This document shows positions 3,714 to 37,040 of a DNA stretch of 39,242 bases, one piece after another. Positions within the stretch are counted from its first letter, which is position 1; each line of letters opens with the position of its first letter. Position numbers and translations under genes: made by a program. The DNA is from Basidiobolus meristosporus CBS 931.73 (lineage: Eukaryota; Basidiobolomycota; Basidiobolomycetes; Basidiobolales; Basidiobolaceae). The stretch spans positions 1 through 39,242 of the forward strand of contig MCFE01000752.1 of assembly GCA_002104905.1 (NCBI GenBank), given 5' to 3'. A model generated the notes under the pieces. That model had not been told where the DNA came from. It saw only the letters and a program-made list of their open reading frames with translations, and did no database searches.

Positions 3714-4993
3714 TCAGACTCTGAATGGCTTGCGATCTGGAAGATCTTCGGGAATGGGATAGACCCGAAGACTCGAGGGAAAGTTGTTCACGTTGGCACC
3801 GCTGGTTTCCCAAGATTTCAAGCCAAACGTTGTCGCCAAAGTGCTTTGTGAAAGTCGATGATGATAAGCGCGGGTGGATTTCATGAAAGGAAGGTCATCG
3901 CAAGGCACGGTGAGCTTGGAGATACGAGACGAGAACGAGGCGGTGCTGACGGGCGAATCTTTCGACATATACTTGGAGGAGCTTGCTGACGAGCGCAAAT
4001 CCAACGGCTTTATCCGGTTCTGAGGGGTGATGGGGGCCGAAGGGGTAGATGATCTTTGTGGTGTGCCCGAGGGCTCGGTGACGTTCTCCGAATCGCAGTC
4101 TGACCCCTCACTTAGACTAGGGATGGACTGTGACGGAGAGCTTTGGGACGATCCTGCTTTCAAATTATTCTTACTTTCCTCGCTCAAATCATCCTTGAAT
4201 GTCTCCGCACGTGCTTTGTATTGTCTACGATAGGCATCGTATACTCTTTTGGTCACCTCCCTTACTTCTTGACTTGGGTCCATACACCCTACACGTATGG
4301 CGTCTTCAAATATATCCAGATACGGCTCGAGCTTGTTATCGAAGAACTGAATATACTCCACCAGTATCTCCATAATGTTGCATTTCGCAAACTCGTTTCC
4401 CCCTTTGAAGCCATGGATGACTCCGGCGGTATGGGAGAGTAGCTTGCCGTTTTGTACCAAAGTAACCAGGCACTCCCTTGCACGAAGCTGAAAGATCCTG
4501 GAATCACGATGAATCAACTCCAGAATGGATGGGACAAACTGCTCTTCCAACGGGAGGAACTTGTCGGCATCCAACTTCATACCCAAGGTTTTCACGAAAT
4601 CAAGAGTAGTGGCAACTAGAATGCTTTTTTGTGATGTCATCTGGAAAGGCTATGTGAGTAGGGTGCGGGCTGAGGACCGGGGAAGGTTCAACATACCAGA
4701 GTTTTGATATGAATGGCCAATTCCTGGAGCAGGGTGGGAAAGGTATCGGGAAGCTGGCCCTGTTTACAGAAATCGTCAAGCTCACGGATGGTTTCATTCA
4801 GCAAAGACCAGGTGTCGTCAGTCTCAGGAGTATTTTTGAGGATGTTGGCAATTTCATTATACAGCTTGACAGAGCTGGAAGACTAGATGGCAAGGGGATG
4901 AATATGAATGGCGACGAGATGGTGTCAATGCAAGAACCGAGCCCGACTTACATTATCAGAGTTATGAACAGGGGAGTTGGCAATGTCCAGCAT
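3714..4993 (-). CDS. CLASP-like TOG-domain protein
   Basis: Three exons inferred: 4993-4952, 4882-4697, 4640-3714, giving 384 aa. Donors are GTAAGT and GTATGT; acceptors are CATCTAG and TTTCCAG; the phases join cleanly. Residues about 15-240 form helical HEAT-type repeats that resemble the CLASP N-terminal TOG domain, with runs such as LLNETIRELDDFC, EQFVPSILELIHRDSRIF and AIRVGCMDPSQEVREVTKR. TOG domains of this family bind tubulin and stabilise microtubules at plus ends or the spindle. The C-terminal ~130 residues are Ser/Pro-rich with basic patches, as expected for a microtubule-lattice-binding tail. The protein is much shorter than typical CLASPs and has a single TOG, so it may be a reduced paralogue. 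The start is the first ATG after a TATA box about 235 nt upstream. The TOG call rests on pattern recognition, not a profile search. Confidence 0.7.
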
Positions 4994-5226
4994 TTTGGAA
5001 GTCTTTATAGTACTGATCAGTGATGATTAGGAGCGTGTGTAGGGTTCTATAAAAGTAGAGCAATAATAAGCCACGTAAACTTCGAGAAAGTGATTATGTG
5101 AAAGGAAGGCACCTGAACACAGAGTTGAAGAGATGGTATGCGTCTAGGGAAGGAAGGGAAGAAATATGGATGAGAGAGGAGGCTTTTGACTTGAGTGCTT
5201 TACAGGAGATTAAGGCCCACTCCGCC

Positions 5227-5233
5227 CTTTATA
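5227..5233 (-). promoter_or_regulatory. TATA box of the CLASP-like gene
   Basis: TATAAAG lies on the minus strand. The ~230 nt between it and the chosen start at 4993 contain no ATG and a CT-rich leader, consistent with a real transcription start here. A second TATAAAG lies just upstream of the ATG and is too close to serve it. Confidence 0.45.
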
Positions 5234-5239
5234 ATTCCC

Positions 5240-6737
5240 GAAAGCACACCAGTTACCCATGTTGATCCGAGCTCGCATTCTCACCAAAATTGTTAATATA
5301 AATGGAATGAATCGGTGAATTCACTTTAATTATGATAGGAATATATTGTAAGGTTCTGGACTAATTTAAGTATCAGTTTCACTGCAATGAATGTCGGAGT
5401 AAATCAGTACAATACGGAACGATCTTGAAAATATGAAACTAATACCAAATACTTAATCAAGTTCGATGAGCGAGGTGAATGAAATATGCGAACTCTCCTG
5501 TTTCAAGGTTAGCCAGCAAGATCCATGATATAGCTAGGATTCCTGCTCCAATCCAGTCGTCAAACGCCATAATTTCTTCCTTCTCCATGACAGTGCTGAA
5601 TTCATGGGTTGGATGCGATGCGTGCATAGCAATCAGCTTGTAGACCAGCACACGCACAACCAATTCATTAATTCAGCTCCGGTGTGTATCACTCCTCATC
5701 ACACTCTTGTGAAAAATGCATCATGCTTTGCATCTCCACCCTGTTACATTGCGGCAGTTGCTCATGTAACATACGCTGGTTCTGAGTTTAACCAGAAACT
5801 AATATGTCAAGAAATTCACGATTATCAAGTTTTCATACCACCCTGCATTCATCCACAGAGTCCCACTCCTTCTCATTAGCCCCTATTGTATCCGTTTTGG
5901 TTCAAAGCGCTGCCAAGTCTTGGAGCTGAGCAGTTGCGAATAGCTCAGATTTGGCATCGATGATCATATCAGCATCCGCAACAGCACTTTGTAGGGACTG
6001 AAGTCGCACCTCATTGTGTCTTCGTCATTGAAATCTTGTTGGGCATACCGGTTCTCATTCCTCCTTGATTGGCCAACGTTGTCGTGAGGAGTCGTAGGGC
6101 GATTCCGGACACCTTGGAACACTGAATCCTGGACCAACGTCATCATACAATCTTGAAGATTCGAGCTTCAGGTGCTACTCGAGTTCTAGTCGTTAGCGAC
6201 TGAACACAAAATGTAGTACAAATTAGCATTTTGATGATTCGCTGTCCACTCTGCCTGCCTCAGCGATGCCACAAAATCAAGGTCATACACGCATCCTAGC
6301 TCATGATGGATCCAGAATTGGCAGGCCTTTTCAAGTCAGTTGTCTGAGAAGAGCGTGGTCTTCCTGGCAGGCTTGGCCCAGAGCACCCGCGTATCGCGTG
6401 GATCTCATTCGAACCATCCCAATCCCGCTCAAGAATCCAACTTTGCCAGTGCCTCTACCTCAAATCCAACTTGGAACCGCTCGAGTGGAAATGTTCTCTA
6501 GTATCATTATTAATAAACCTTATTTCACAGCATTCAAAACTGTTGATGACAACAAAAGGCTATACTATTCTATCGACAAAGGAAATAAATATTCAAAGAT
6601 AAGGTGCTCAAGAAATCATACATCAGAAGCTATTGAAAATCTATATTAGATCAAAAGGGTGGAAATTTTACAAAAGTAGCAGAAGACGCTAGGCCATAGT
6701 GCAAATCGGCACATGAAGACAAACATCACCAATGCAT
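5240..6737. other. Gene-poor interval
   Basis: Beyond the CLASP-like promoter I see only short, incoherent open frames (for example 6266-6649 on the plus strand, proline-rich, with no recognisable family). The right end is the 3' flank of the large minus-strand gene that stops at 6738. No RNA gene was recognised. Confidence 0.5.
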
Positions 6738-9700
6738 TTACCGTTGATGCTTCCTGAGTAAGGTTTCAAAATCATCTTCCACATAGCCCTGTTGGCCCTC
6801 TGCGTCGTAATCAAGATCCCCGCCACCAGGTTCAGATCCACCAGAGGCCTCTTTGGCTTTGTTTTTCTTCCGTTTCTTCTTCTTGCTCTTCGCTTTCCGT
6901 GAGGCGGTTGTTCCGGTCAACGCCTCTACTTCTGCAGGAGCAATATGCGGGTATTTGCAGTCCGGCTTGGTGCACACACCAGTACTAGCAAATGTGAAAC
7001 AGTATCCGGCTGGGCCAGGAAGCCTCGGAGGAAATGTATATGGTACTTGGTCCGGGGGCCCATTCCAGGCTGCAGGTATGTACGGGATGGTCTTTAGGTC
7101 AACGGCCACTGGGCTGGAGTGGGCCTTATGAAGATCATAATGGTTGGGTTGTGGTTTATCCGTAAGCGAGACATTTCTAAATATAGAGGCGTTGATTTCA
7201 CCCTTCGTGTGAGTGATGAGATAAATGCCGTTCGCAAAGCCTTGAACTTTCGTAAAGAGATAATGCAATAATTTACTGTGTGGGCGCGGCCAATTTCCAT
7301 TCGGTATGATGTCTACCATATTCCGGCGCTCCACCTTTACTAATCTACCTGAGAGTGCGTCTATTCTGCCGACCATCAGGCTGGCATCCCCACGTATGAA
7401 CGTATGAATCCACCAGCGCGCCTTCTCCTCCGCAACCACATCCTCGAAGCCATGATCGAGATGATATTCCATCTTGGTCTTGATCCCAACCAACTTTGAC
7501 TTGTTCTCCGGCCCATTGCTCTTGATAAATCCATGAATTTTGCATCGAATCAATACAGTGAAGCTTCCGAATGTCCATAAGGTATAAGTTGTATCATCCA
7601 TATTTTCTGGATTGGTCAGATTGGATTTGTGCTGCGAAACATCAGAACCCGGAAGTTTGTCGATTTTACCAGTTGCTTCTGGTGCACAGGTGTTTGGGCT
7701 GGGCTCAGGATTGGTACATTCTGGATCGTGCAACTCAGACTGGATTTGAGTCGAGCTGTCGTTACTGGACGCCGTGTTGTTGTTCAGCGTAGCATTGGTG
7801 GTGGTGGGAAGCGAGTTGAGATTCTCAGGAGCGCTTGGTGGGATATTTGAAGTGGCGTCGGGTGGAATGGCTGAAGGAGCCTCATGTGGCATATCTGAAG
7901 GATTCGATGCATTATGGCTTGGCGATGTGACGTGTTGTGCTTGGTTCTCCATGACGGGTTTTTCAGCAATACTGTTGATGCCATTAGTTTTCACAAACAT
8001 ACTTTTGAAGGCCGCGTTGAAGAACTGCTGATTCCTGGAGCGAGGAGTCACGGATTTTTTCAGAAGTGGCTTGTCTATAAATATCACTTTCTTGGTTTGC
8101 CCGTCTGATAAAGTAATTTCTTTGACTACTACGGGGATTTCGCATTCACTATCCAATGATGCTTGTAAAGCAACTAATGCAGAAAGGCCACCGGATGATA
8201 TAACGATATCTACATTATGCTTGGTCACGAGATCTTGAACATATGGATCCTTGCTAACCACTGGAGCCTTCTTCTTACTCCACGAGTTGGAGCTTTCGGG
8301 TGGGTTAAGAGAGCTTTGCTGAGGGCTTTCGGGTGGAATATAGTTTTCCCAGCATTTCTTGTTGATAGTAATCTCAAGGGGTTGTTGGAAAAATGGTAGG
8401 TCAAGTTGATGACAGTTGCCCACTCGCAACAATGTTTGCTTGTAAGATAGTACAGGCTCTCGGGGTGAAGGTGCGCCTAGACGTAAGCCGACTGTATGCA
8501 AAAACTCATAATGGCGAGGATACTGTTGCAGAATACGTTGACGATCAACTTCGAGTTTCTGTTGAATCTGCTTTGCTATATTTTCGTCAAGTATAAACAA
8601 CCTATCTTTAGTAGTCTCGTATTGCCATTTATGAAAGAGTTCCCTTTCTTGATCAATGCGTTGGCGTAAGCGCATATATAATGTATGATCAGCGTCCGAG
8701 AGCAGCGTGTTATTCTTCTCCGAAAGCATATGGATTTTTAAGAATTTCAAATGATCCTCCTTCGTAAGTGAAGAGATAGGAATCGATGGTCTCTTCGTGT
8801 CATTGGCCGATCTGGTGGATGAGGATGGAGATGAGCAGGTTTGTTGGGAGAGGACTGTTGATGTTTCTGAAGGCAGCTCTGAAGTTGGTAACACTGTTCC
8901 ACCAAGAGAGGAGAGAGCAATTAGCATGTCGGTTGGAATGGCTTGTGGGAATGGTCGAGTTGCCTCATAATTAATGATGCCTTGAGGTTTCTCTTTTGCG
9001 CTGGGTACTTCAGTTATTTTCTCGATAAGACTATCAACAGATTGAATCTCTTGTACTGGCTTTTCAACCTCTCTTTCGTCAGCAACTTTTCTCTCTGGCG
9101 CAGCATCTGTGTTGGGTCGTTGGGCAACTTCACATTCAGTGGAGTCGATATTGTCTTTCTCTAACATCGATTTGTTGGTCGCTATAAATTGTGAGGGAAG
9201 ATTCTCAGTATTGCCGGTACATATTGTATCGGTATGCTCAGGGCCATTGGGAGAGACGTTCGATTGGTTTGTAAATGGAGTGATTATATCGCACATAGAG
9301 CCGCCAACGTCGACTACCTCCTCAGTTATGAGTGAATCCTCTATGATACTAATCGCCTGAGGGACTCCAGCTAACAGATAATACACACATTAAAAAAACC
9401 CCAATCGATTTGCTTAGCAAGATGACATACCTGGTTGGCTCGACTCATTTGATGCTTCACCATTTTCTTTACTTTTCCTTTGCTCGGAATCACTGGTTGG
9501 TTTTATGACTGGCGAATCCGGTTTCCTGAAATCTTCGATCGAATTGTCCTTAGATGTTACTGTTTGCATGTTTGCCTGCTTCATCAATGACGCAGGCTCG
9601 AAAGATTGTGTCGTTGTCTTCGCTTTTCGAAGAGGTGGGAGGGTAGGTGACATTGGAGATGGAAGATTCTTCAGTAGGAGAAAATCTTCTGATGATTGAG

Positions 9701-11493
9701 ATGGAGGAGGCGTTTTAGATTGTTTGAATGATGAGCTCTTTTTCCGTGGTTGTACATCCGTTGGCAATTCCTCCTGCTCCGGCCTAACTGTGACCTCCAC
9801 AGTAGAAGTAGGTTCAGGATTTGCGGACAGGTGACTTTCAGAGGACTTCTTTATTTTTTTGGAGGTAGTAGAATCGGTAGACTTCTTGCGCTTTTTGGTA
9901 ACCTTGCTGGAGGCTTTTTCACTAATATTCGAGTCTACTTGGATGTTATTAACATTCTCGGTTTGCGAATCTATCCACATTTGCCCCTTGTTGGCTGGAA
10001 GAACAGTGGCTGTTTCGTGACCCATAGAGTTCTGACTTGAATCCAAGAGCATGTAGTTACTGGTCTGCAAGTTACGGATTGTCGTTTTAAGATCGGAAAT
10101 TTCGATTTGTTGCTCAGTGAACACATCTTGCAACACGCGCTTTGCTTTCTCTAACTTGTCTATTTCACCTCGTAACTGTGCAATGATTGATGGATCAAAG
10201 CCTGCGTTAGAATGTTTGACTGCATTCGGCTCCGGTAGCTTTTTGGCTGTCTTCAGTTCACTAATAGTATGTTCTTGCTTTGTGAGTAAAGATTTTGCAG
10301 CATGGAGCTTTTTCTTCAGGCCCTCAGCTTCTACTTGATGTTTAGTAGCCTCAATATTCAGTTTCTTCTCAAACTCTGACTGGGCTTTACGAGATGCATC
10401 CTGTAGCTCATTGATCAAATCTTCCTGCCTTCTGAAATTACTTTCAAGTTCGTGATAACGCTTATCTACGCTAACTTGCTGCTCTTTTGTAATCTCCAGT
10501 TGGGTTTTCAAGTCAGAAATCTCCTCCTTCATCTGATTAATTTTTGATTCAGACTCATCATCACTGACATTATCAATCTGCTCTCGTAACAGCTCGTTCT
10601 CCAACTTCAACTCATTAATAAGATCCTCTCTATAATCGGTATACATTAGGACCTGTGTAGTACGCTAAACAAACCAAATTCGCACTTACTTTGCCTCCAA
10701 TTCAACTTTCAAATCGTCCGAAATAGAGTTCTTCTTTTCGCCATCTTTTAACTTGAGTCCTATTGACTGATTTTCCTTTTCCAACTGTTTGACACGCGCT
10801 TTCAGCTGTTCACAGAGCGATTTTTCATTCTTCTCTTGTGTTCCTCTGAGATATGCAACAAACTTTAAATCACTGAAGGCATACCATACATTAAATAATT
10901 CAGCTTTTACCTTGATTCCAAGTCCTTGGTTAACTTGTGAATTTGTTTTTTCTGGTCTTCCACTAAATTCCGGAATGGCTCCAACTCTTCCAGTTGATAC
11001 TGAAGCTGATTTTTCAGAAGCTTAAGGTTGAAATTGCCGACATTAGATCAATTAAGAGACGATAAGAAACCGAAATTGGTTACCTCCAGTGAGGCAAACT
11101 TGGATTTCCATTTTTCCATCTCCTCGCGTAAAGAAACGCTGACTTTCTCTTTCTCCGATGAAGAGGTTTGGCATTGGTTCAGTGCGTCTTTCAAACGTGC
11201 AATCTCATCTTTGTATACTACTTCCTGGTGAACCGATCTTAAAGTAGAGCTTTTTGTCTCTTGTAACTCTTCTTGCAGCTTCTTGATGGTTTCTTTCGCT
11301 TTCTTATTTTCTATCAAGGGATTTGTAGTTCAATACGAGAAGGTTTCAAACAAATGCCACCAAACAATGTACCTTCTTCTTTCACGTCAAATATTTTCAA
11401 CAATTTGTTGGTGTTGATGATTCGCTCTTTGATCGCCTGTATGTTCTCTTCGGGTGAGACAGTTTTTGGTTTACTCTTCTCCTCGTTAGACAT
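6738..11493 (-). CDS. Little Elongation Complex-like fusion: ICE1-like coiled coil + ICE2/NARG2-like domain + CCCH finger
   Basis: Six exons inferred: 11493-11373, 11310-11084, 11020-10911, 10845-10690, 10629-9431, 9370-6738. All junctions are GT-AG and keep frame, giving 1,481 aa. Residues about 15-395 are predicted coiled coil. The segment IKERIINTNKLLK near residues 21-33 recalls the N-terminus of animal ICE1. A Lys-rich nuclear signal (KKRKKS) lies near 450. Residues ~810-910 (helical, ending in QQYPRHYEFLHTVGL) and ~1200-1365 (starting YTLWTFGSFTVLIRC, ending PYTFPP) resemble ICE2/NARG2, whose C-terminal domain is Pfam NARG2_C. A CCCH finger (C-x8-C-x4-C-x3-H) lies at ~1395-1413, then a KSKKKKRKK stretch. 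In animals ICE1, ICE2, ELL and ZC3H8 form the complex that drives Pol II snRNA transcription. The gene model is strong; the ICE1 and ICE2 assignments are from memory and need HMM support. The key junction is the 60-nt intron at 9430-9371, which joins the two large reading frames. Confidence 0.65.
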
Positions 11494-11501: not shown

Positions 11502-13399
11502 GAAGATGCACGCTCTTGAGAAATCCGAAAGGCTCGATTCTAATTTTCTTCCCTTGCAAAAAGAAAAAAACGATCTAAGGAATTTCCAACACTAATACTA
11601 AAGGAGGGACAACTTGGAAAATTCGAACTTGCACCTAGTGTTAAATATCAGAAAATATCAATATCTTGAAGGTATGAACTTTTTTTTCGCAGTCCAATTA
11701 CTTTTTAATCAGCATTCAATGTCAAGTTTGTGATGTATTTCAGAGTGCCTTTTGATCCATTTTGATTGGTGCTGATCTCCGTTGGTATTGCTGATATCAA
11801 TTCCGATGAATATTTCAGAAGCACGACTGTCAGAAGTTGAATGAGATGATCCATTTTATTCATACCCAGGGCATATGATACCTGCACGTATATTTTGGAC
11901 TGCATTGCTGAGGGAGCCGTTAAAAAAAATACTTCTTGGCATAAAAGGCTTCTAAGGGATTTTGTTGATCGATGACGGTTGTGTAATTTGGTTCACCACC
12001 GGGAGGAAGTGTCTTGAGTGTTCTCGTATGTTCAAGAAAGAGTCATAGCACTCGGCTTACCTAGAGAAACCACGAGAAGCCTGCTTCAAGAAGCAACCGT
12101 TATTCTTCTTAGCAGTTTTGGAATTGGTCCTTGTTCGTTGACCACGTACTGGTAAGTCAATGTGCGTCTCTTACTAACGTACGAGTTTGTTTGACGAAGT
12201 TGCAATATTAACTTGCCTCTCAAATCGCTCTCGATAGTCATATTGGTGAGAAGGCCACTTAGTGAGCTAAGCAATACTCAGATTAACCAGCTAAGCTTAC
12301 ACTCCTTGTGGATACTTAATTTGCTGCCCAGGCCTTCAGCGATGGTATGGCCAATAGCATCAAAGTAAGTAAAGGCACGTATAACTTCTTATCAGGCAAA
12401 TTCACACTAGGGAGATGAAGCATAGCGTATCAATATTCCAACAAGCAGAAGCACGCTTTATTGAATATCTCATGATATTCGGTGTTTGATCGACTCTTCC
12501 CCACACCATTGATAGACTTTTCACCCCTGGTTCTTAATCTTGCTTACAACTCTGCTTAAATATGAGTTTATCAACGCTAGATTGTCCAAGTTGAAAATCC
12601 TACAAATATGATCGCAGTTGGATATTAATCCGAGGATTGCCTCAACGCAATTGGAGATATTTCGGGATCTTGATATCAAGATATAAACACTCCTGAATCA
12701 TACCCCAGCCACTAATATTGAATTCAAGGAAATGTTGCTGGGTTCAGCTTATAAGCCCCAAGATGTGCAATGTACCTTTTGAGAATTATTATGTCCCTTT
12801 CAGACACATACGTGAAAACAGCTGTATTAGGTGGTTATAGAGTAAGATGCAATGATAGAATTGCTAAAATTGGAATGAGTTTCTCCACAAAATTCTCTTG
12901 AAGACATTATGCAACAAAGAATACCTTTATTCGTTGAATTGTGGGCTGCTTGAATACATTTCTACACCCCGCACCCTCCTTGCGCAAGCACTACGACCCT
13001 CGAGGTTCAGGTGAGCAAGAGTTTGCTGAGTACTGGTAGACAACAATGAGCATTGGGGTGTTCTTTTTCATTCCAGGTGTTACATATATACTATAGCATC
13101 CATTGCTATAATGGAAACACGATATGATGCCAGTTGTGGGACAAAAGTAGCAAGTTATCAACTGCAAAGTCTGCGACACAAGGAAACTATCTAGATTGAA
13201 AGCTAGCCAATCAAAGAGACAAATAGCTCATTCATCTCAATAGGGGCCGTATTCCAAACAATATGGGAATATATCAAATATCAAGAGGAATTGAATTCAA
13301 AATCGGCCCTCTGAAATTTCTAGAAAAATATAGGGAAATGATCAAATGATAAGCTAGATTTAAGGTAAGTAACTTGTTCACATAAGTTACATCCACAAC
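11494..13399. other. Interval with unrecognised open frames, no firm gene
   Basis: The minus strand has two modest open frames (about 12274-12086 and 11905-11705). The second contains a helix-rich stretch (MDHLIQLLTVVLLKY) and could be an exon. I could not join them with convincing splice sites, and translations in between meet stops. This may be a decayed or many-exon gene. Nothing else is recognisable. Confidence 0.3.
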
Positions 13400-13890
13400 A
13401 TTTGGGACTCCAAGGTCTTTTCTCTCAAGAATTTTATTCGTGCTGCGAAAAACCCATTTATCATATTTTAGAACACGTTAGCATATACTCGACTGACATC
13501 TTTGTTGTTTCCCATTTGCCATGGAGTGCCTCAAGTGGTTTATTCCACTGTTTCTTCTTCCGCAACCTAGCGCTTCGCCATACTTTATATATTTATTTTT
13601 GTTTTCTTATATCCTACACAGTAAGCCTTGTGTCTATTGTACGATTCTATTAGTAGCATTACTAGGCTCTACTTGCTACTGGGGGACCGATCATTGTTGG
13701 GTTGACACAAACCACATGGATATTTTCTCGCCTCGAAACATTTCGCTATTAACCCCACTCCCGCTTCAAGAAGAGCAGATATAATGCAAGAAATCCATCT
13801 TACGATACCTCTCTTTTTGACCTTCCCCCGCCAAGCTAGAGATCATAGTGTTTTCCCGCGATAAAGCCCTCTTCGAGCTACACAAATTTG

Positions 13891-15523: not shown

Positions 15524-17118
15524 TTAAAGTCCACTCTTCTTGCGTAGTTTTTCTCCCTTAAACTTAACCCACAGCATTGCTGTGATAATAGCCAAGTTCA
15601 GTACTGCAAGTAAGACGGAGAGATATCTGACGCCAATACGTTGAATCAGTGGCTCGGCTGTGATTGATAAGATGGCTGCTATGGTCATCCTAACAAAATT
15701 CGCAGCTGCTGATGCGCTGGCGCCACGACCGGGCACAGCATCAACCAAGTAGGTTGTTGCTGATGTTGATATTTGCATTAAGCCAAAGCAGAGAATACCA
15801 AATCCGATAATCGGTGCTACTATATATACGCCATAGTATACAGTCCATCCGAAGATTAGTGCGCCCCCGGGTACTATCAAATACCCGCTGAGCCACATGT
15901 GTGGTGCTAAGCGATCTTCAGGAATATTGGTTCCACCACGACGTTTGCTTGCTTGTCGCATGAAATAGTCAGAGAGTACACCGCCAACACAACTTCCCAA
16001 TATGTTGCCGCAACCGGCACCGAGATACGTAATCCCTGTTTGCGCAGAGGATAACCCATAGACATGTGAAAACAGCTCAGGCAAGATAGTTTCTATCGTA
16101 AACATTGTGCCAAAGGATATACCTGTCTCGATAGACACAATAACAAGAAACCAGTGCTTTAGGAGAGCAAGCGAGGCAAATGGGTTCATTCGCTTGGTAG
16201 TAGTTCGAGTATTGCGTGATACATGGTTAGGAATCTTGATTTTCACGGTCTCATGTATATCCTGGGCTTCCGACGCAATAGTATTTGTGCCCTTTTGCTG
16301 TAAGTTACTACTGTCCGAAGGCAATTCTAACCATTCGTCTTCTCTCCTGTATGTCTCTGGCAGAGCAAAGAACATGATAAAGAAGATAAAGACTCCAAAT
16401 GCGCCGCAGAAATAGAATGTGGATCTCCAACCAAATCTAGACGTTAAAAAGCCTCCGATGGTGGGTCCCTAATACGGAACATCGTTAGTCAACTGTCTAG
16501 AATTAAATAAGAAGCAATCAAGGTACTCACGATCAAGGGGCCTATGTATTGGCCTAAGAATAGCAAACCCATAGACATGCCTCTCTCATGTATGCCAAAG
16601 CAATCCGCAATTGTCCCTGGGCTCAAGCTATAAAGAGAACTGGATCCACATGACTGGATACAGCGGAGTATAATCAAGAGGGTGGTGCTGTTGACGAAAG
16701 CTGCGCCAATAGTGGCGCCAATGAATATCAGGACAGACACCAAGTAGAGTACTCTTCGTATACCATAGTGATCGGATAGACTGGCCCAGAAAACGGGTGC
16801 GATACCCATGAACAAAATAAACAATGATACAGTAGCATTAACGGCTATACTCGATGCATTCAAGTCTCTGCTAATGGCTGGAAGCGCAGGGAAATAAATG
16901 GTAGAAGCCAAAGGCGCCAGCATTCCACCAATTCCTAGTTGTGCCACGATAAGTGTCTTGCTTGTTTTTGAGAATGTACGAGGGTCCTTTTCAATTACGG
17001 GATTGGGCGTAAGTTGACGTTTAAAGTAGGCAACGATTTTTTCTCCCATGGTGTTATTGTGGGAGCTTTTCTCAACGGTTACTTCGGGGGTAGCTTGTGT
17101 ATGACTTGGATTATTCAT
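15524..17118 (-). CDS. MFS drug:H+ antiporter, DHA1-type
   Basis: Two exons inferred: 17118-16531 and 16468-15524, split by a 62-nt intron (GTGAGT donor, TTAG acceptor, candidate branch site GACTAAC), giving 510 aa. It is a polytopic plasma- or vacuolar-membrane exporter of the fungal DHA1 group (QDR/AQR/TPO-like); such proteins pump small organic compounds outward using the proton gradient. Motif A appears between TM2 and TM3 as SLSDHYGIRR. Motif C in TM5 is GQYIGPLIGPTIGG, and the intron falls inside it; the exact rejoining supports the splice model. A hydrophilic central loop of about 60 residues follows TM6, and six further hydrophobic segments lie in exon 2. The start at 17118 is the first ATG after a TATA-like element. 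The substrate cannot be read from the sequence. Confidence 0.88.
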
Positions 17119-17256
17119 AGTTAGGTTTTTTAAGGTTGGGTTACTTGTTTTTAGTTGTTTAGATATAGCCTGAAGGACTAAGTCGGCTATGAATGCAGGA
17201 GTATAGGTCAATGCTGATATATGGGTTATGGAGATCAATGCTTGCAGAGTGGCACT

Positions 17257-19933: not shown

Positions 19934-21073
<1,140 letters not shown>

Positions 21074-27011: not shown

Positions 27012-27063
27012 TAGAGGCTAACAGAACATCTGAATTGCAGATTTGTTTTCTCCAATATTTGAG

Positions 27064-28179
27064 ATGTTAGCGAAACCTTCCCTTGCTACTATTACACTTT
27101 CCACTCTTGCAACTCTATCAGTACTTCACGGGGTTTTGAGCGCTGTGGACCCCTCCCAACTTGGATGTAGTCCTTCTAATCCGTTGGTTCAATGCCCAGT
27201 AGGTTATTGTTGCTCTAAGCATGGCTTTTGTGGACAAAGCGACGACTTTTGCAAGGCAAACTGTGGTTTTCAATGTGACGGACATCCTGAGGCTAGTAAT
27301 GCGCCAGCTCCTCAGGTCGGGACTTACATCCATCAATGTAATATCCCTGGTACCGTTGCTATGACCTTTGACGATGGACCTCATACTCTAACTAACCAGT
27401 TGCTCGACACCCTCAAAGCTAAGGGCCTTCACGTCACCTTCTTCATCATTGGTAACACGTTAGAAAACGCCAATAACGGACCAATTTTGAAGAGAGCTTA
27501 CGATGAGGGTCATCACATCGCTCAACATACCTATAATCACATTGATACAGGCCTAAAGATTGTACCAGAGGCCGAAGTTCGTGCTGATTTGGCCAAAACT
27601 GAAGACGCAATTTATAAGATTATTGGGAAGCGTACTCGTTACTTCCGTCCCCCAACTGGTATCAGCTCACCTGAGCAACTCAAGATGATGACTGAGTTGG
27701 GATATCAAGTAATTCACTGGAACTTGGATACCAATGACTGGCGCCACAGAGATGCCCAAAAGGTTCGGGATGTTTATGCCCAGACCCTTCGCGGCATGGA
27801 TCCCAAGAAACATCAACTTCTTGCCCTACATCACGACATCCACGATGCTTCAGTTATTGCTGCACCTGATGTTATCAAGATGGTTGAAGATGCTTGCTTT
27901 AAAATTGTCACAGTTCCTGAATGTCTTGGGGATAAGCAATGGTACAAAGATGAGGGTGAGCATGCTGGCCATCGTGTTCCTTCAATTGATGCCAATTGTG
28001 TCCCCAAGTATCCTGAGTTGCCAGTAGTAACCCCTAACGCCACTTTATCAAGCGGACAACCAAGCCCTACCGGAAACGCGACCTCTGATGGCAAGGACGT
28101 AGGTAAGTCCGGCTCAACCGTAAATTTGCCCTCTCTTATTGTCAGCGGAATCATCTCAGCAGTGGTAGCACTGTTGTGA
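27064..28179 (+). CDS. Secreted, GPI-type chitin deacetylase with CBM18 domain
   Basis: A single exon of 371 aa. Residues 1-27 form a signal peptide (cleavage likely after VLSA). Residues 35-71 are a hevein-type chitin-binding domain (CBM18) with the full eight cysteines. A polysaccharide deacetylase (NodB, CE4) domain follows with all five motifs: TFDDGP at 101-106 (general base and metal Asp), H-T-Y-N-H at 155-159 (metal His), RPPTG at 195-199, DTNDW at 222-226, and LLALHH at 252-257. It removes acetyl groups from chitin to give chitosan in the cell wall. The Ser/Thr/Pro-rich region and hydrophobic C-terminus (SLIVSGIISAVVALL) indicate GPI anchoring. Translation from ATG 27064 is preferred; the frame is open 21 nt further upstream but without an ATG. 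A second CBM18 protein follows 0.4 kb downstream on the same strand. Confidence 0.95.
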   Translation: MLAKPSLATITLSTLATLSVLHGVLSAVDPSQLGCSPSNPLVQCPVGYCCSKHGFCGQSDDFCKANCGFQCDGHPEASNAPAPQVGTYIHQCNIPGTVAMTFDDGPHTLTNQLLDTLKAKGLHVTFFIIGNTLENANNGPILKRAYDEGHHIAQHTYNHIDTGLKIVPEAEVRADLAKTEDAIYKIIGKRTRYFRPPTGISSPEQLKMMTELGYQVIHWNLDTNDWRHRDAQKVRDVYAQTLRGMDPKKHQLLALHHDIHDASVIAAPDVIKMVEDACFKIVTVPECLGDKQWYKDEGEHAGHRVPSIDANCVPKYPELPVVTPNATLSSGQPSPTGNATSDGKDVGKSGSTVNLPSLIVSGIISAVVALL

Positions 28180-29010: not shown

Positions 29011-29777
29011 GGCTTATCAAACCGACTGCTCACAAGAGAGTTTGAAATGAAGCTTTTGCATGGTACATAGCTATCTTAATAGACATGCTTAGAGTGCACT
29101 TGTAGCCGAGAATACCTAGAAATAAATCCACTTTCAGTATTTATTGCTTTCGGTAGCCTATTCAGATGGCACCTGGTCAGAGAGCTGGATGACCGGCTGA
29201 ATCGTTTGATTAGACGGCAAAACGAAAGTTGGAGTGTTCGGGTCGTGACCACAATGGATAAAAAATCCTCAGTTCATTTTACGATTCTATCAGAACATTA
29301 GTGGTTGATTTTCGTGTTTCGCATGAACAGTAGTTTATAGGATTATCAAGCAATAGGCGGTAAATTGAATTACAATTAAATCCAATTATTCAATTGTCTC
29401 GAACGTATTATGTAGGAACGGATGCGGCAGCTGTATAGTGAGTGGATGAAAATATTTTAAATCGAATCCGTAGCCAAGATTACTAAGAAACCATCATCGG
29501 CCAATCATCTAGAGCGCCGCCTATGACCAATCAGCTTCAGGTAACGATCGGTTCCATAAGTTTTGGTTGGGCGATCTGCCAGGTTCGAATTGAGGCCATT
29601 TCCAAAAAAGCTTTATGACAGAACATATGAGAAATCACCAGAAAAGCCTGAAGCATATTACTGATCAATGGAAAGCTAGATCAGATGTGAGGTTCTACTT
29701 AAATATCGCCGATTCTATGACACATTGCTCATTATAGCTTACCAAGTCTCCCTAGCTCCTGTGGATGGACGAATAGC
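29011..29777. other. Intergenic, promoter side of the BAG-domain gene
   Basis: A+T-rich with no frame of note. Both flanking genes read on the plus strand. I could not choose a core promoter with confidence. Confidence 0.45.
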
Positions 29778-30917
29778 ATGTATCCGCCTTACACCGAGTT
29801 TTATCCGTACGAGGCTGTGTGCCAAATTCCAACTCAACGACGTAGAGTCCTTGAGCCTGTCTATTATGCCCCTTCGATTTCTACTTCACGTCGCTATGTG
29901 CATCCAGAAAATTACATAGAATATGTTTCACATCCTCGGTATTACCATACATCAAGTCCAAGCGAGCGGTATTTCACACAAAGCTCTAGATATCCGAGAG
30001 CTTTTGAGCCTGATGTTGGAAGATCCTACATCCACCCAAGCCATATAGATCGTGCTGCTAGCTTTACACCTGTTATAAACCAGATACGGCTACAGCCAGC
30101 AAGAGAGTCAAGCCAATACAAGCTTCTAAGGCCCAACAATGGCGCACTACCACTTGATTACATGCGCCAATCTCTTCCTCCACCTGAGGCTAGTTATGGC
30201 AACCCACGGAGAATTCACGGACAGAGACTGAACAACTCTGTACTGGACATGCATCATCTTGAGTATCATCCCGAATATAGGGTATCGGCCCGCGATTCCC
30301 TGAACAACCATGCAGCTCGTTATTCTGCGCAACCATGGTTGCAAAACGCTCTGTTACAACAAGAGCAGCATACACTAATGATGGAGAACCAAAAGAAGCG
30401 ATTAGAGGAAGAGAGAAGGATCCGGGCTATTCACCTTTTCATACTGAACAGGGCAACAAAAACGATTCAACGCCAGTGGCGACTCTACTGTGGGCGACGC
30501 CGAGTCAAAGCAGCTGAAACAATTGTAAACTTCATTATTTCTCAAAGAGAAATCCATCAGGCACGTAAAATCAAAAGTAGTCTCCGACAATTGCGCGACT
30601 ATGGCAAGGAGGTTGAGAAGATTCATGATAGTCAGATACCAAGAGTCTTCGAACACCCGCTGAAGTTTGATTGCTCTGCTGGGAGTGCTCAACAAGTTCC
30701 GCCAATCAAGGAGAACCAAATCTTTCTTGGATGCGAGGAAGCTTTGTTAAAAATGTTGGTCCGCATTGATGGAGTGGAAAGTATGGATTGTATGATAATA
30801 AGAGAGGTGCGAAAATCGCTGGTGCAAAAGGTTCAATCATTCCTTGATAAGCTTGATAATTATAAGGTAATTCAGTACGAGGAATATCTCCAAAAGCAGA
30901 TCAAGCAAGTTGCATAG
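29778..30917 (+). CDS. IQ-motif and BAG-domain protein (Hsp70 co-chaperone type)
   Basis: A single exon of 379 aa. Residues 1-200 are low in complexity, rich in Tyr, Arg, Pro and Ser (many RYY, YHP-like pairs). A basic coiled-coil/IQ region follows; the IQ motif at ~230-240 matches IQxxxRxxxxR exactly (IQRQWRLYCGR) and predicts calmodulin binding. Residues ~316-362 match a BAG domain: LLKMLVRIDGVES, then IREVRKSLVQKVQSFLDKLD. BAG domains bind the Hsp70 ATPase domain and act as nucleotide exchange factors. The IQ-before-BAG order is best known from plant BAG proteins. The BAG call is from pattern, with the conserved Arg/Lys-x-Leu-Val-x-x-Val-Gln helix visible. The ATG at 29778 is the first of this frame. 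Confidence 0.8.
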   Translation: MYPPYTEFYPYEAVCQIPTQRRRVLEPVYYAPSISTSRRYVHPENYIEYVSHPRYYHTSSPSERYFTQSSRYPRAFEPDVGRSYIHPSHIDRAASFTPVINQIRLQPARESSQYKLLRPNNGALPLDYMRQSLPPPEASYGNPRRIHGQRLNNSVLDMHHLEYHPEYRVSARDSLNNHAARYSAQPWLQNALLQQEQHTLMMENQKKRLEEERRIRAIHLFILNRATKTIQRQWRLYCGRRRVKAAETIVNFIISQREIHQARKIKSSLRQLRDYGKEVEKIHDSQIPRVFEHPLKFDCSAGSAQQVPPIKENQIFLGCEEALLKMLVRIDGVESMDCMIIREVRKSLVQKVQSFLDKLDNYKVIQYEEYLQKQIKQVA

Positions 30918-32242: not shown

Positions 32243-35056
32243 CTAAATGTTCATACTGACTAGTCCTAATTTTGACCTAAGATATTCAAACTTGTCTCTA
32301 GCTAATGGTTTGGTAAATATGTCTGCAATCATTTCATCTGTAGGACAGTAAACTAAGCTAACTAAGTTATTCTCTATAGCTTCACGTATGAAATGATGTC
32401 TAATATCTATGTGCTTGGTTCTAGCATGAAAAGTTGGATTTCTACCTAATTGTATACATCCTTGATTATCTTGAAATAAAGTAATAGGCGTTTTTTGACA
32501 TAGGCCTAAATCTGTAAACAGCTTTCTTAACCACATTGCTTCTTTTGTAGCTTCACAGGCTGCCATATACTCTGCCTCTGTGGTGGAAAGCGCTACGGTT
32601 GGTTGCTTTCTTGAATTCCATGAAATTGCTCCTTTACAATAAAGAAAGGTGTATCCTGTGGTGGATCTTCTGTCTTCTAAATTTCGTCCCCAATCAGCAT
32701 CAGAGTATCCCACAAGATCCTGTTCTGAGTCCTTATAAGTATATCTTAAGCAGATATCAGCAGTTCCTTTTAGGTATCTAAAAATCCGCTTAACTGCTGC
32801 AATATGATCAGATCCATAGTTCTGATTATGTTGGCTGACAACTCCCACCAAATATGAGATATCTGACATGTTCCAAGCATGATATACATCAGACTGCCGA
32901 CCATAGATTGATAAGGAAAGTCAGGGCTTTCAGATGGCACCAAGCTCTCTTGATTTGGTTGAGTTTTGACCAAGTTAAGGTTTGTCTACATTGGGGTAGC
33001 TGCCGGTTTACAGTCTTCCATTTTGTACTTCTTTAGTATATCTTGAATATACTTGGATTGGCTTAGGGTAATAGTCTGGGTACTTCTGTCTATGGAGAAC
33101 TTAATCTCTAAGTAGTAACTGAGTTCTCCTAGATCAGACATCTTGAACTCTTTAGATAGGCTGGATTTAGTCTCTTCCAATGTTTCTAGGTTATTGGCGG
33201 CTATAATAAGATCATCCACATATAGAGCTAATAGAACTGGATTTGCTCTATCTGGCTTATTGTATATACTATAGTCAGCATTACTTCTTTTGAAACTCAA
33301 AGATTCCAAATAAGAATCTATCTTGCAATTCCAGGCTCTCAGTGATTGTTTGAGACCATATAGTGACTTTTTAAGATTGCAGACCAAATAGGGGTTATCT
33401 TGGTCAATAAACCCATCAGGCTGGTCCATATACACATCCTCATCAAGTTCTCCATTCAAAAATGCAGTTTTTACATCCATTTGATGAATAAAAAACTTAT
33501 ATTTTGCTGCAATAGCCAATATTAATCTGATGGAATTAAACTTGGCTACCGGTGCAAAGGTCTCAGTATAGTCAAGTCCTTTTGTTTGAGAGTATCCTTT
33601 GGCTACAAGTCTTGCTTTGTATCTTTCAATTGTACCATCAGCCTTGTATTTGTTGTAAGAGTCTTGGAGATACTGGAAGTGATTGGGAGAACAAGTAGAT
33701 TATGTGGTTTTCACTTAATGATTTATTGAATGTAAAAGTGGTATTTATACTTTTACCTGGTCTTGGCATTGAAAACATGTAGAATAGGTTACGGAAGGTC
33801 CCAAGAACATGTGTGCAAAGTTTGGGGCTGTTTGAACAACTTTGAGAATTTTCATGTTCTGGGTACCTGATATTTTGGTGAAAATAATCTAAGTAAATCC
33901 CAACAAGGAATTTGGTCAGTATTCTCTAGGATTTGAAGGTGATGATCTAAGTGACTAAGTTAGGTGAATATTTAGGTGGAAATACAAATTTTTACAACAG
34001 TATTTTGTCTTGAAGACCCATCTGCATCCAATTGATTTTTGGTTGATTGGTAATTTGACTAAGTCCCAAGTTTGATTTTCCATCAGGGCCTGATATTCCT
34101 CAGTCATTGCAGATCTCCAAAACTTTGTCTGAGGGCTATTTAGGGCCTCTTTTACAGTCTGGGGTTCATCAATATGGACTGAATAGGCATAGGCTAAGTT
34201 TGTACCCTCATTGATATAGTAATTTGGGCTATTTCTTGTCCGATCGGATCTCCAGGTATTTGATACTGGAATGATCACTTCTGGGATATTCCTGGGCACT
34301 GATTCTGGCTGAACCATGGTTGTAGAGTCCTCTGGAGTGAAAAAATTTTCATTGTTTTGCTCTGATTCAATCCTGACAATTGGTGGACTTGAGATCAAAT
34401 TTTTGTCATCATCTGATGTCATTTTTTGTGAAAATTTTGAATTTTCATCAAACAACACATCCCTGGACTTGATAAGCTTCTTTGCTTTGGTATTGTAGAG
34501 TCTGTATGCCTTACTCTCATTGCAGTAGCCCAAAAATATGCATTTTACACTTTTTGGCTCAAATTTTGACTGATTTCCGGCCAGTTTTTTGGCATATGCT
34601 GTACACCCAAATATTCTTAGAAGTTCTGCACTTGGTCTGTATCCATACCATGCTTCAAATGGAGTAGAATCACGAAGTATTCTGTTATAACTCCTATGTT
34701 TAATGTATACAGCAGTAGCAACTGATTCCGCCCAAAATTCATAGGATAATTTTTGATCATGGATCATAGATCTTACCATATCAATTATTGATCTGTTAGC
34801 TTGTTCTGCTACTCCATTTTGCTATGGGGAGTATGGTACAGTAGTCTCTTGCTTTATCCCATGAATTTTGCAGAAGTGGATGAAGAGTTTTGAGGTATAT
34901 TCTCCACCATTGTCAGAGCGTATTTTCTTGATTTTTTCACCAGTTTCTCTCTCCACCATGGCTTTAAACTCCCTGAGCTTAGACAGAGCTTCTTCCTTTC
35001 TCTCCATGAAGTAGACCCATGTGTATCTTGTATAATCATCAATAAAAGTGATTAAA
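32243..35056 (-). pseudogene. Decayed Ty1/copia pol (integrase, RT, RNase H)
   Basis: Read on the minus strand. The integrase core begins abruptly at ~35056 (FIDDYTRY, RSDNGGEY; catalytic Asp residues visible). RT follows with MDVKTAFLNGELDE and LYVDDLIIA, then RNase H (SDADW, LSTTEAEYMA, DNQGCIQL, TKHIDIRHHF), the standard copia order. Lesions: a TAG in integrase at 34824-34822; a solo LTR inserted at 33651-33999 early in RT; a TAG at 32988-32986; and a one-base frameshift near 32870. Gag, protease and the 5' LTR are absent, because LINE copy D begins at 35061 where they should continue. The element is not autonomous. Confidence 0.92.
33651..33999 (-). repeat. Solo LTR of the same copia family, nested in RT
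   Basis: 349 bp with TGTTGTAA/TTACAACA ends, flanked on both sides by a 5-bp target duplication GTATT (33646-33650 and 34000-34004). The copia frame resumes exactly after it. It is a full insertion later reduced by LTR-LTR recombination. Confidence 0.93.
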
Positions 35057-35945: not shown

Positions 35946-37040
35946 GGGGGGGGGAGACAGTCACCAACAGGTGAAATCTTTATTTCAGTTGAAACAAAGA
36001 AGCCAGCGCTACTGTTGTAGCTTTGATACAAGAGTGTGTAGCTGAGGGGAATTAGTAGGTAAGTTAATAAGAAGTGATGATAGTTCTTCAGTGCTCAAGA
36101 CACTGTTCAGTGGGAAGGGGGGTAGCAAGAGAGGTAAGAATGACTTGTGAACAACATTAATGAGGGGAATGTGATAAGGATTGATATTCATCATAAAGGG
36201 AGTGTGCTGCTGCAGATATTGCTGCCAAAGGTCTGTCAAGTACTTCAGGTAGGCCAGCTTGGGTTTTTCTGACTGCAGAATATAGTGAGCAAACTTCTTG
36301 ACTTCAGGATCTCCGAGTATAGTTCTCCAGCAGGAGCCAGGTGTTGTGTGGTGTGTTCTCTTCCAGGCCTTAATCAGTGGGTTGTTGCAGTTGTGAAGTC
36401 TGAGGTATAATCTGGTTCTAAGGTAGAGAAGTCTGATCTTATAGGGCATAAACCCAAAAGCACCAAGAATAGCATGTCTGTAGGGGCATTCAGGCAAATG
36501 AGGCACCAAGGAGGTAATGCACCATACTGCAAACTTGTCAAGCTTAGTGCAGTCTCTAGAAGTAAGAGAGAGAAGTGGTAAGCCAAATTCCAGGACAGGG
36601 AAGACAAACTGCTTGAGTAGAAGGAGGCAGCTGGGAGCTGAAGTTGTAGGAGGAGTAACAGCCAGTAGCTTGTGGAGTGCCTGTCTTGCCAGGATAATTC
36701 TCTTCTTCAGGTGTGCTCCAGAGTCTAGTCCAGTAGGAAGGAAAGGAAAGCCAAGATATGTAGCAGAAACCTGAGCAGGTAGAGTGGAGTTCTCCAAGTT
36801 GATGGGAGAGCCCAAAGGTACTGTCTTTGCAATGGAAAGCTGGAGATTATTCTTCTGCAGATACTGGTGGATGGTCTGGGAGTCTTGTTGCACATTGGAG
36901 GAGGATATTCTGATGTCATCAGCAAAGAGAGTAACCAGGCAGTCAGCTGAGAGTCTTGGGAAATCATTCAGGAAGATGGCAAACAGTATAGGACCAAGCA
37001 CAGAGCCTTGAACCACTCCATTAGGAACTGAGAACACTTA
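35946..37040 (-). mobile_element. LINE copy E, 5'-truncated, about 1.1 kb
   Basis: Nearly identical (about 10 differences) to the 3' 1.09 kb of copy F. The 5' end breaks at 37037 within the RT frame, just after the RT core region preceding FSVPNGVVQGSVLG. The tail ends in nine C's on the minus strand (35954-35946) and directly meets element D. It retains the end of the RT (LFADD) and C-terminal region, with the stop at 36009. Confidence 0.93.
36009..37037 (-). pseudogene. Truncated LINE reverse transcriptase (copy E)
   Basis: 342 codons are open, beginning in RT motif B (VVQGSVLGP) and including the catalytic LFADDIRI motif and the whole C-terminal region. The N-terminal half of the RT and any endonuclease are missing through 5' truncation, so the product cannot be active. 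It differs from copy F at only a few residues. Confidence 0.9.

What the first reader, a model, noticed from the sequence alone, without database searches (positions are those of the whole stretch)
6738..11493. One polypeptide that seems to fuse Little Elongation Complex subunits (ICE1-like + ICE2-like + CCCH)
Two large minus-strand frames, at first sight separate genes, are joined by a clean 60-nt intron (9430-9371), and four further introns add an N-terminal coiled coil. The N-terminus carries IKERIINTNKLLK, which recalls animal ICE1. The C-terminal half has a NARG2/ICE2-like domain (YTLWTFGSFTVLIRC ... PYTFPP), then a CCCH finger. In animals these parts are separate proteins (ICE1, ICE2, and the CCCH protein ZC3H8) of the Pol II snRNA elongation complex. 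A single-chain version in a fungus would fix subunit stoichiometry and suggest an ancestral or derived fusion. Seen: gene model and motifs. Inferred: the homologies.
Basis: partly seen in the sequence, partly recalled or inferred. Interest (0 to 1): 0.78.

Follow-up and report, generated by a model that had tools for sequence, protein, structure and literature searches.

The report
Fungal ICE1–ICE2 fused transcription-elongation protein
In this fungus one gene appears to encode the front half of the transcription factor subunit ICE1 joined to most of its partner ICE2, two proteins that are separate in animals; the part of ICE1 that is reported to grip ICE2 was not found.

Summary
The gene model holds: six exons, five GT-AG introns of 60-65 nt, one 1,481-residue frame, minus strand 11493-6738. 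Residues 803-1413 are ICE2 (NARG2_C 75.5 bits, cut-off 30.8), the only ICE2 found in the genome. The N-terminal coil matches the N-terminus of an Endogone protein, P0004, which is a fungal ICE1: its C-terminus matches a profile of vertebrate ICE1 C-termini (40.8 bits). So the chain is ICE1 N-terminal half + ICE2.

The ICE1 C-terminal domain, reported to bind ICE2 in human cells, is absent from the chain and was not detected elsewhere in the genome. The CCCH finger is no ZC3H8 fusion: it belongs to ICE2 in 3 of 3 Glomeromycotina relatives.

The join is supported by coding signal between intron 5 and the first methionine of the ICE2 frame, not by transcripts. In the few relatives seen ICE1 and ICE2 are separate, so the fusion is probably derived. 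ELL and EAF genes are present. Best reading: a covalent tether has replaced the ICE1_C-ICE2 contact in a slimmed Little Elongation Complex. Eight paper searches listed nothing on this.

The parts
6738..11493 (-). whole gene, ATG to stop, 6 exons, 1,481 aa
11373..11493 (-). exon 1, start codon at 11493
11389..11454 (-). ICE1 N-terminal block, residues 14-35, 21 of 22 residues identical to Endogone ICE1 (P0004); carries the IINT motif shared with vertebrate ICE1
11311..11372 (-). intron 1, 62 nt
   Evidence: the P0004 alignment runs without a gap over the junction
11084..11310 (-). exon 2, coiled coil (by eye)
11021..11083 (-). intron 2, 63 nt
10911..11020 (-). exon 3
10846..10910 (-). intron 3, 65 nt
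10690..10845 (-). exon 4
10630..10689 (-). intron 4, 60 nt
9431..10629 (-). exon 5, rest of the coiled coil and linker without recognised domain
10074..10163 (-). second ICE1 block, residues 361-390, at the end of the coiled coil (KAKRVLQD...)
9371..9430 (-). intron 5, 60 nt, phase 1, joins the ICE1 and ICE2 parts; stop codon of the upstream frame inside
6738..9370 (-). exon 6, ICE2 part
9297..9370 (-). coding-like stretch upstream of the first in-frame Met (Met630) of the ICE2 frame; evidence that exon 6 is spliced to something upstream
7974..8777 (-). ICE2 N-terminal region, residues 803-1070, 35-39% identical to the Glomeromycotina proteins
7074..7607 (-). NARG2_C domain (PF10505), residues 1193-1370
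6945..7001 (-). CCCH finger C-x8-C-x4-C-x3-H, residues 1395-1413 (by eye), conserved in the fungal ICE2 proteins found

Best explanation
One gene encodes a single-chain subunit of a fungal Little Elongation Complex (LEC). Its N-terminal ~400 residues are the coiled-coil half of ICE1; after a ~400-residue linker without recognised domain follows ICE2 (residues ~803-1413, with the CCCH finger of fungal ICE2s). The ICE1 C-terminal domain and the N-terminal [FY]F[TN]R[DE]AY motif of its ICE2 relatives are both gone, as expected if the 5' part of an ICE1 gene was joined to the 3' part of an ICE2 gene. In human cells ICE1 is the scaffold and its C-terminal part binds ICE2; here the covalent link would take over that contact, leaving the coiled coil to bind partners such as ELL or the cap-binding complex and the ICE2 part with its CCCH finger to work beside it. 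Shown: gene model, both homologies, what was not found, and ELL and EAF genes in the genome. Inferred: that the gene is transcribed and spliced as one mRNA, that the product sits in an ELL-EAF complex, that it acts on snRNA-type Pol II genes, and that the tether replaces the ICE1_C-ICE2 contact.
Against: No transcript or protein evidence. The two papers differ on which half of human ICE1 binds ELL. A profile of 9 vertebrate ICE1 N-termini did not hit the window or P0004; the direct window-vertebrate resemblance rests on a 22-residue block (10 of 5,000 shuffles as good), so ICE1 identity depends on the single bridge P0004, and P0004's own best gapped alignment to vertebrate ICE1 in the coil lay elsewhere than at that block. 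Only 1 fungal ICE1 and 3 fungal ICE2 proteins were seen, 2 of the 3 named 'partial'; no second fused protein was found. The genome search for ICE1_C goes exon by exon on a fragmented assembly and could miss a diverged or much-split domain.
Confidence: 0.72

Rival explanations
1. Two neighbouring genes on one strand, an ICE1-like gene ending in the retained 'intron' and an ICE2 gene starting at Met630; the fusion is only on paper.
For: The upstream frame has its own stop at 9416-9414 and the downstream frame its own Met at 9296; 852 aa from Met630 is close to the 891 aa of Cetraspora ICE2. ICE1 and ICE2 are separate in the other organisms seen.
Against: Only 118 nt would lie between the genes; 9370-9297 is coding-like in the ICE2 frame upstream of Met630, and that frame has no ATG there; the ICE1 gene would lack its C-terminal domain and the ICE2 gene the N-terminal [FY]F[TN]R[DE]AY motif that 3 of 3 relatives have.
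Confidence: 0.14
2. The fusion is real, but ICE1 was split: a separate gene for the ICE1 C-terminal domain survives undetected elsewhere, so the complex has an ICE1N-ICE2 chain plus a free ICE1_C.
For: The search is exon by exon and the assembly is fragmented (1,311 contigs); any withheld stretch would read N.
Against: P0004's C-terminal part is detectable across fungus and vertebrate (E 3.5e-10 to 1.1e-6 for 4 proteins), yet in this genome only an unconvincing match appeared (C609:54676-54936, E 5.95) with no ICE1_C around it; family PF25817 gave 0 candidates, though its control rang nowhere, so that search alone proves no absence.
Confidence: 0.2
3. The N-terminal coiled coil is unrelated to ICE1: an ordinary coiled coil on an ICE2 protein.
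For: Coiled coils resemble one another; direct similarity to vertebrate ICE1 is short and a vertebrate N-terminal profile missed it.
Against: Only 1 of 1,022 candidates passed E 10 and it is a protein with an independent ICE1 C-terminal domain; two separated blocks agree, the first with 21 of 22 residues identical.
Confidence: 0.05

Closest known systems
ICE2 (NARG2), Little Elongation Complex subunit 2
   Same: NARG2_C domain above cut-off; collinear with three Glomeromycotina ICE2 proteins over two regions and the CCCH finger.
   Different: Carries an ICE1-type coiled coil in front; the N-terminal [FY]F[TN]R[DE]AY motif of the three relatives was not found.
ICE1 (KIAA0947), Little Elongation Complex subunit 1; Endogone BC937DRAFT_88232 (P0004)
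   Same: N-terminal block PEENIQAIKERxINTNKLLKIF and end-of-coil block, collinear.
   Different: No ICE1 C-terminal domain (PF25817; the human C-terminus is called a putative MIF4G domain in PMC5896957, passages); ICE2 stands in its place.
ZC3H8, CCCH protein of the animal complex
   Same: A CCCH finger in a protein of the same complex.
   Different: One finger, not three, placed right after NARG2_C as in the fungal ICE2 proteins found; no ZC3H8 sequence was compared.
S. pombe Ebp1 of the ELL-EAF complex (recalled, no call supports it)
   Same: Recalled as an ICE2-like ELL partner in a fungus.
   Different: Not compared; two searches found no paper that holds its name together with the other terms.

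Membership tests
ICE2 / NARG2 | NARG2_C domain above the curated cut-off | tested here: met
   75.5 bits against 30.8, residues 1193-1370
ICE2 / NARG2 | second conserved region upstream (about 803-1070) shared with other ICE2 proteins | tested here: met
   39%, 38% and 35% identity to P0001, P0002, P0003 (for P0003 the match is 771-1062)
ICE2 / NARG2 | N-terminal [FY]F[TN]R[DE]AY motif of the Glomeromycotina ICE2 proteins (3 of 3) | tested here: not met
   no match in six frames of the window to a relaxed pattern (a motif split by an intron would be missed); P0003's N-terminus matches nowhere in the genome. Whether this motif defines the family beyond these 3 is not known
ICE1 | N-terminal block with the IINT motif and coiled coil | tested here: met
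   direct to a vertebrate ICE1 10 of 5,000 shuffles as good, profile of 9 vertebrates no hit; coiled coil judged by eye
ICE1 | ICE1 C-terminal domain (PF25817) | tested here: not met
   no Pfam match in the protein at E 1; vertebrate profile -18.2 bits while P0004 scores 40.8; so the chain is not filed as a full ICE1
ZC3H8 | three CCCH fingers | tested here: not met
   one finger by eye in the translation; three predicted fingers in ZC3H8 per PMC6057032
Little Elongation Complex | ELL and EAF partners in the genome | tested here: met
Little Elongation Complex | physical association with ELL-EAF and action on snRNA genes | not testable with these tools
   needs pull-down and run-on or ChIP data

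The most novel reading that the evidence does not exclude
In this fungal lineage the scaffold logic of the Little Elongation Complex was rewired: ICE1's ICE2-binding domain was discarded and replaced by a peptide bond, so that one chain (ICE1 coiled coil + ICE2 + CCCH finger) with ELL and EAF forms a minimal complex. It would be a natural experiment showing that the main duty of ICE1_C is to hold ICE2, and that its reported exon-junction/NMD role is dispensable.
Probability: 0.4. Interest if true: 0.66.

Novelty: new variant of a known kind. Interest (0 to 1): 0.54.

Why it matters
A natural fusion of two subunits is strong evidence that they act together, here outside animals. The work also shows an ICE1 with both its ends in a fungus (P0004); the passages on ICE1 that I saw deal with animal cells. 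The fusion separates the two halves of ICE1: the half that stayed and the half that may have become dispensable once ICE2 was tethered. It gives a single-chain object for structural work; by sequence no solved relative was found for the ICE2 half and only weak coiled-coil matches for P0004.

Tried and rejected
Structure prediction of the ICE2 part with four sequences gave mean pLDDT 36.2, pTM 0.25: too poor, so no fold search was made. PDB searches by sequence: nothing at E 1 for the ICE2 half or for P0001, and only 3 weak Sec2 coiled-coil matches for P0004 (E 0.12-0.42). A profile of 9 vertebrate ICE1 N-termini (82 of 119 proteins held the motif, thinned to 9 below 93% identity) hit neither window nor P0004. 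The best gapped alignment of P0004 to a vertebrate ICE1 N-terminus was not at the motif but elsewhere in the coil, so gapped coil alignments were not used as evidence. PF10390 first gave no ELL and PF09816 no EAF at E 0.001; they were recovered with PF07303 and with E up to 10 and confirmed on joined exons; of two donors tried for the first ELL intron one gave only 96 aa and was dropped. A weak ICE1_C-like match at C609:54676-54936 (E 5.95) was rejected: no surrounding homology. Papers on a fungal ICE1 or on such a fusion: none in the listings (20 of 324, 20 of 56, 0, 2, 10, 20 of 627, 16 and 7 papers listed; titles and starts of abstracts seen; many are on the unrelated plant ICE1/ICE2).
Full report
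Gene model. On the minus strand, 11493-6738, six exons separated by GT-AG introns of 62, 63, 65, 60 and 60 nt give one frame of 1,481 residues. Intron 1 is supported by homology: the alignment to the Endogone protein P0004 runs without a gap over residue 41, where the intron lies. Intron 5 (9430-9371) joins the two big frames. Unspliced, the upstream frame stops at 9416-9414. Of 100 GT-AG pairs between 9600 and 9201, 11 keep the frame open; among the 8 with stricter splice sites 3 do, all from donor 9430, and the 60-nt one fits the length of the other four introns. The first Met in the ICE2 frame is residue 630 at 9296. The 24 codons between the intron and that Met score +0.54 bits per codon with codon usage trained on the rest of the gene (junction left out), against -0.87 and -0.92 in the other frames; the intron scores -0.63 in that frame and -0.25 and +0.13 in the others. 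0 of 1,675 stop-free windows of the same length from two flanking stretches, 11700-13400 and 5000-6700, reach +0.54 (overlapping windows, so not independent). A gene starting at Met630 does not explain this; a splice from upstream does. No transcript data were available.

The ICE2 part. Pfam NARG2_C matches residues 1193-1370 (75.5 bits, cut-off 30.8, E 5.4e-21), and this is the only match in the 89.0-Mb genome. A search with residues 1190-1400 gave 3 proteins of 223 candidates: Cetraspora (891 aa, with a start Met), Racocetra and Acaulospora (both named partial), 44-51% identical. They agree with the window over about residues 803-1070 (35-39%; 771-1062 for Acaulospora) and 1197-1420, the CCCH finger included. 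All three have a motif [FY]F[TN]R[DE]AY ahead of these regions, not found in the window in six frames with a relaxed pattern (an intron inside the motif would hide it); in the whole genome, P0003 matches only the window's three ICE2 segments.

The ICE1 part. A search with residues 1-140 of the full chain gave 1 protein of 1,022 candidates at E 10 or better: P0004, Endogone sp. BC937DRAFT_88232, 981 aa, E 1.0e-5. It shares PEENIQAIKER[IV]INTNKLLKIF at the start (21 of 22 residues) and a KAKRVLQD... block at the end of the coil. Is P0004 an ICE1? Pfam alone gave ICE1_C at 14.8 bits, below its cut-off of 27. A profile of the C-terminal 420 residues of the 114 longer than 1,800 aa (5 shorter ones left out) scores P0004 at 40.8 bits, E 1.3e-10 for 20,000 sequences; the best of 300 shuffles of P0004's C-terminus reached -1.1 bits; hhalign gave P 3.6e-12. 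So P0004 has both an ICE1 C-terminus and the N-terminus seen in the window. The direct comparison of the window with a vertebrate ICE1 (P0005) is weaker: the 22-residue block LITLKQKIINTDNLLTEYQKKC scores 36 at residue 18, reached by 10 of 5,000 shuffles, and for P0004 37, reached by 6 of 5,000; P0004's best gapped alignment lay elsewhere in the coil, and a profile of 9 vertebrate N-termini found neither protein. That residues 1 to about 400 form a coiled coil is judged by eye.

What is missing. The window protein has no Pfam match to ICE1_C at E 1 and scores -18.2 bits on the vertebrate profile. By tblastn P0004 matches the window in the two N-terminal blocks (E 7e-9 and 1e-5); three other matches have E 0.87 or worse. 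In the whole genome P0004 finds only the N-terminal block at this locus (E 7.9e-6) and one match at E 5.95 that does not hold up. PF25817 found 0 candidates, with a control that rang nowhere. Since P0004's C-terminus finds 4 of 4 vertebrate ICE1 C-termini at E 3.5e-10 to 1.1e-6 in a search space of 59 million residues, an intact ICE1_C in one or two exons should have been seen; a much-split or diverged one might not.

Partners. ELL is encoded at L003 (450 aa after splicing; PF10390 32.2 bits, cut-off 22.9; PF07303 32.8 bits, cut-off 31.2) with a second copy 86% identical over 3.3 kb at L004; EAF pieces at L002, joined approximately, score 66.4 bits, cut-off 26. So the core partners of the animal Little Elongation Complex exist here.

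Mechanism. A review passage states that ELL binds the N-terminal domain of human ICE1 while ICE2 and ZC3H8 bind its C-terminal domain (PMC5493778); another paper states that the C-terminal half 1191-2266 binds ICE2 and ELL and the N-terminal half binds CBP80 (PMC7044329, passage). They differ on ELL, but both put ICE2 on the C-terminal half. In the window that part is missing and ICE2 is attached directly. I therefore think the peptide link replaced the ICE1_C-ICE2 contact. A third paper assigns a putative MIF4G domain at the ICE1 C-terminus to the exon junction complex and NMD (PMC5896957, passages); this function would be lost here or done by something else. These steps are inference.

Evolution. 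ICE1 (Endogone) and ICE2 (Cetraspora) are separate as annotated, as in animals, so the fusion is most simply derived in the lineage of this fungus. The sample is small: 1 ICE1 and 3 ICE2 proteins from fungi, found under the length limits of the searches, and 142 of the 262 hits were not shown. The CCCH finger is not a third fused subunit: it follows NARG2_C in 3 of 3 Glomeromycotina proteins.

Verdict. It is a new variant of a known kind. Eight paper searches listed nothing on a fungal ICE1 or such a fusion; three of the lists were capped at 20, and most subscription papers are not in that library.

Noticed in passing
G000:C587 (L003) and G000:C847 (L004): Two ELL-bearing segments, 86% identical over 3.3 kb including DNA outside the ELL exons: a duplicated region or two diverged haplotypes. 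The fusion gene itself was found once.
   Followed up: partly
window 35947-36246 and 37041-37340: A 300-nt direct repeat, 99% identical, 1,094 nt apart, in a stretch with two RVT_1 reverse-transcriptase frames (36009-37037 and 37103-38983): probably a rearranged retroelement.
   Followed up: partly
window 33955-34821 (-): Frame with SH3_retrovirus and a weak match to the start of RVT_2, below its cut-off: probably remains of a Copia-type element.
   Followed up: no
window 27034-28179 (+): Polysaccharide deacetylase with a chitin-recognition domain, probably a chitin deacetylase.
   Followed up: no
window 3714-4649, 15524-17256, 19934-20659 (-), 29721-30917 (+): Neighbouring gene pieces: CLASP_N, an MFS transporter, a Forkhead domain and a BAG domain (10 frames of the window were scanned).
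   Followed up: no
P0001-P0003: The Glomeromycotina ICE2 proteins share a second, incomplete cysteine motif (NYCFVFADTGxC) after the CCCH finger, not seen in the window protein.
   Followed up: no
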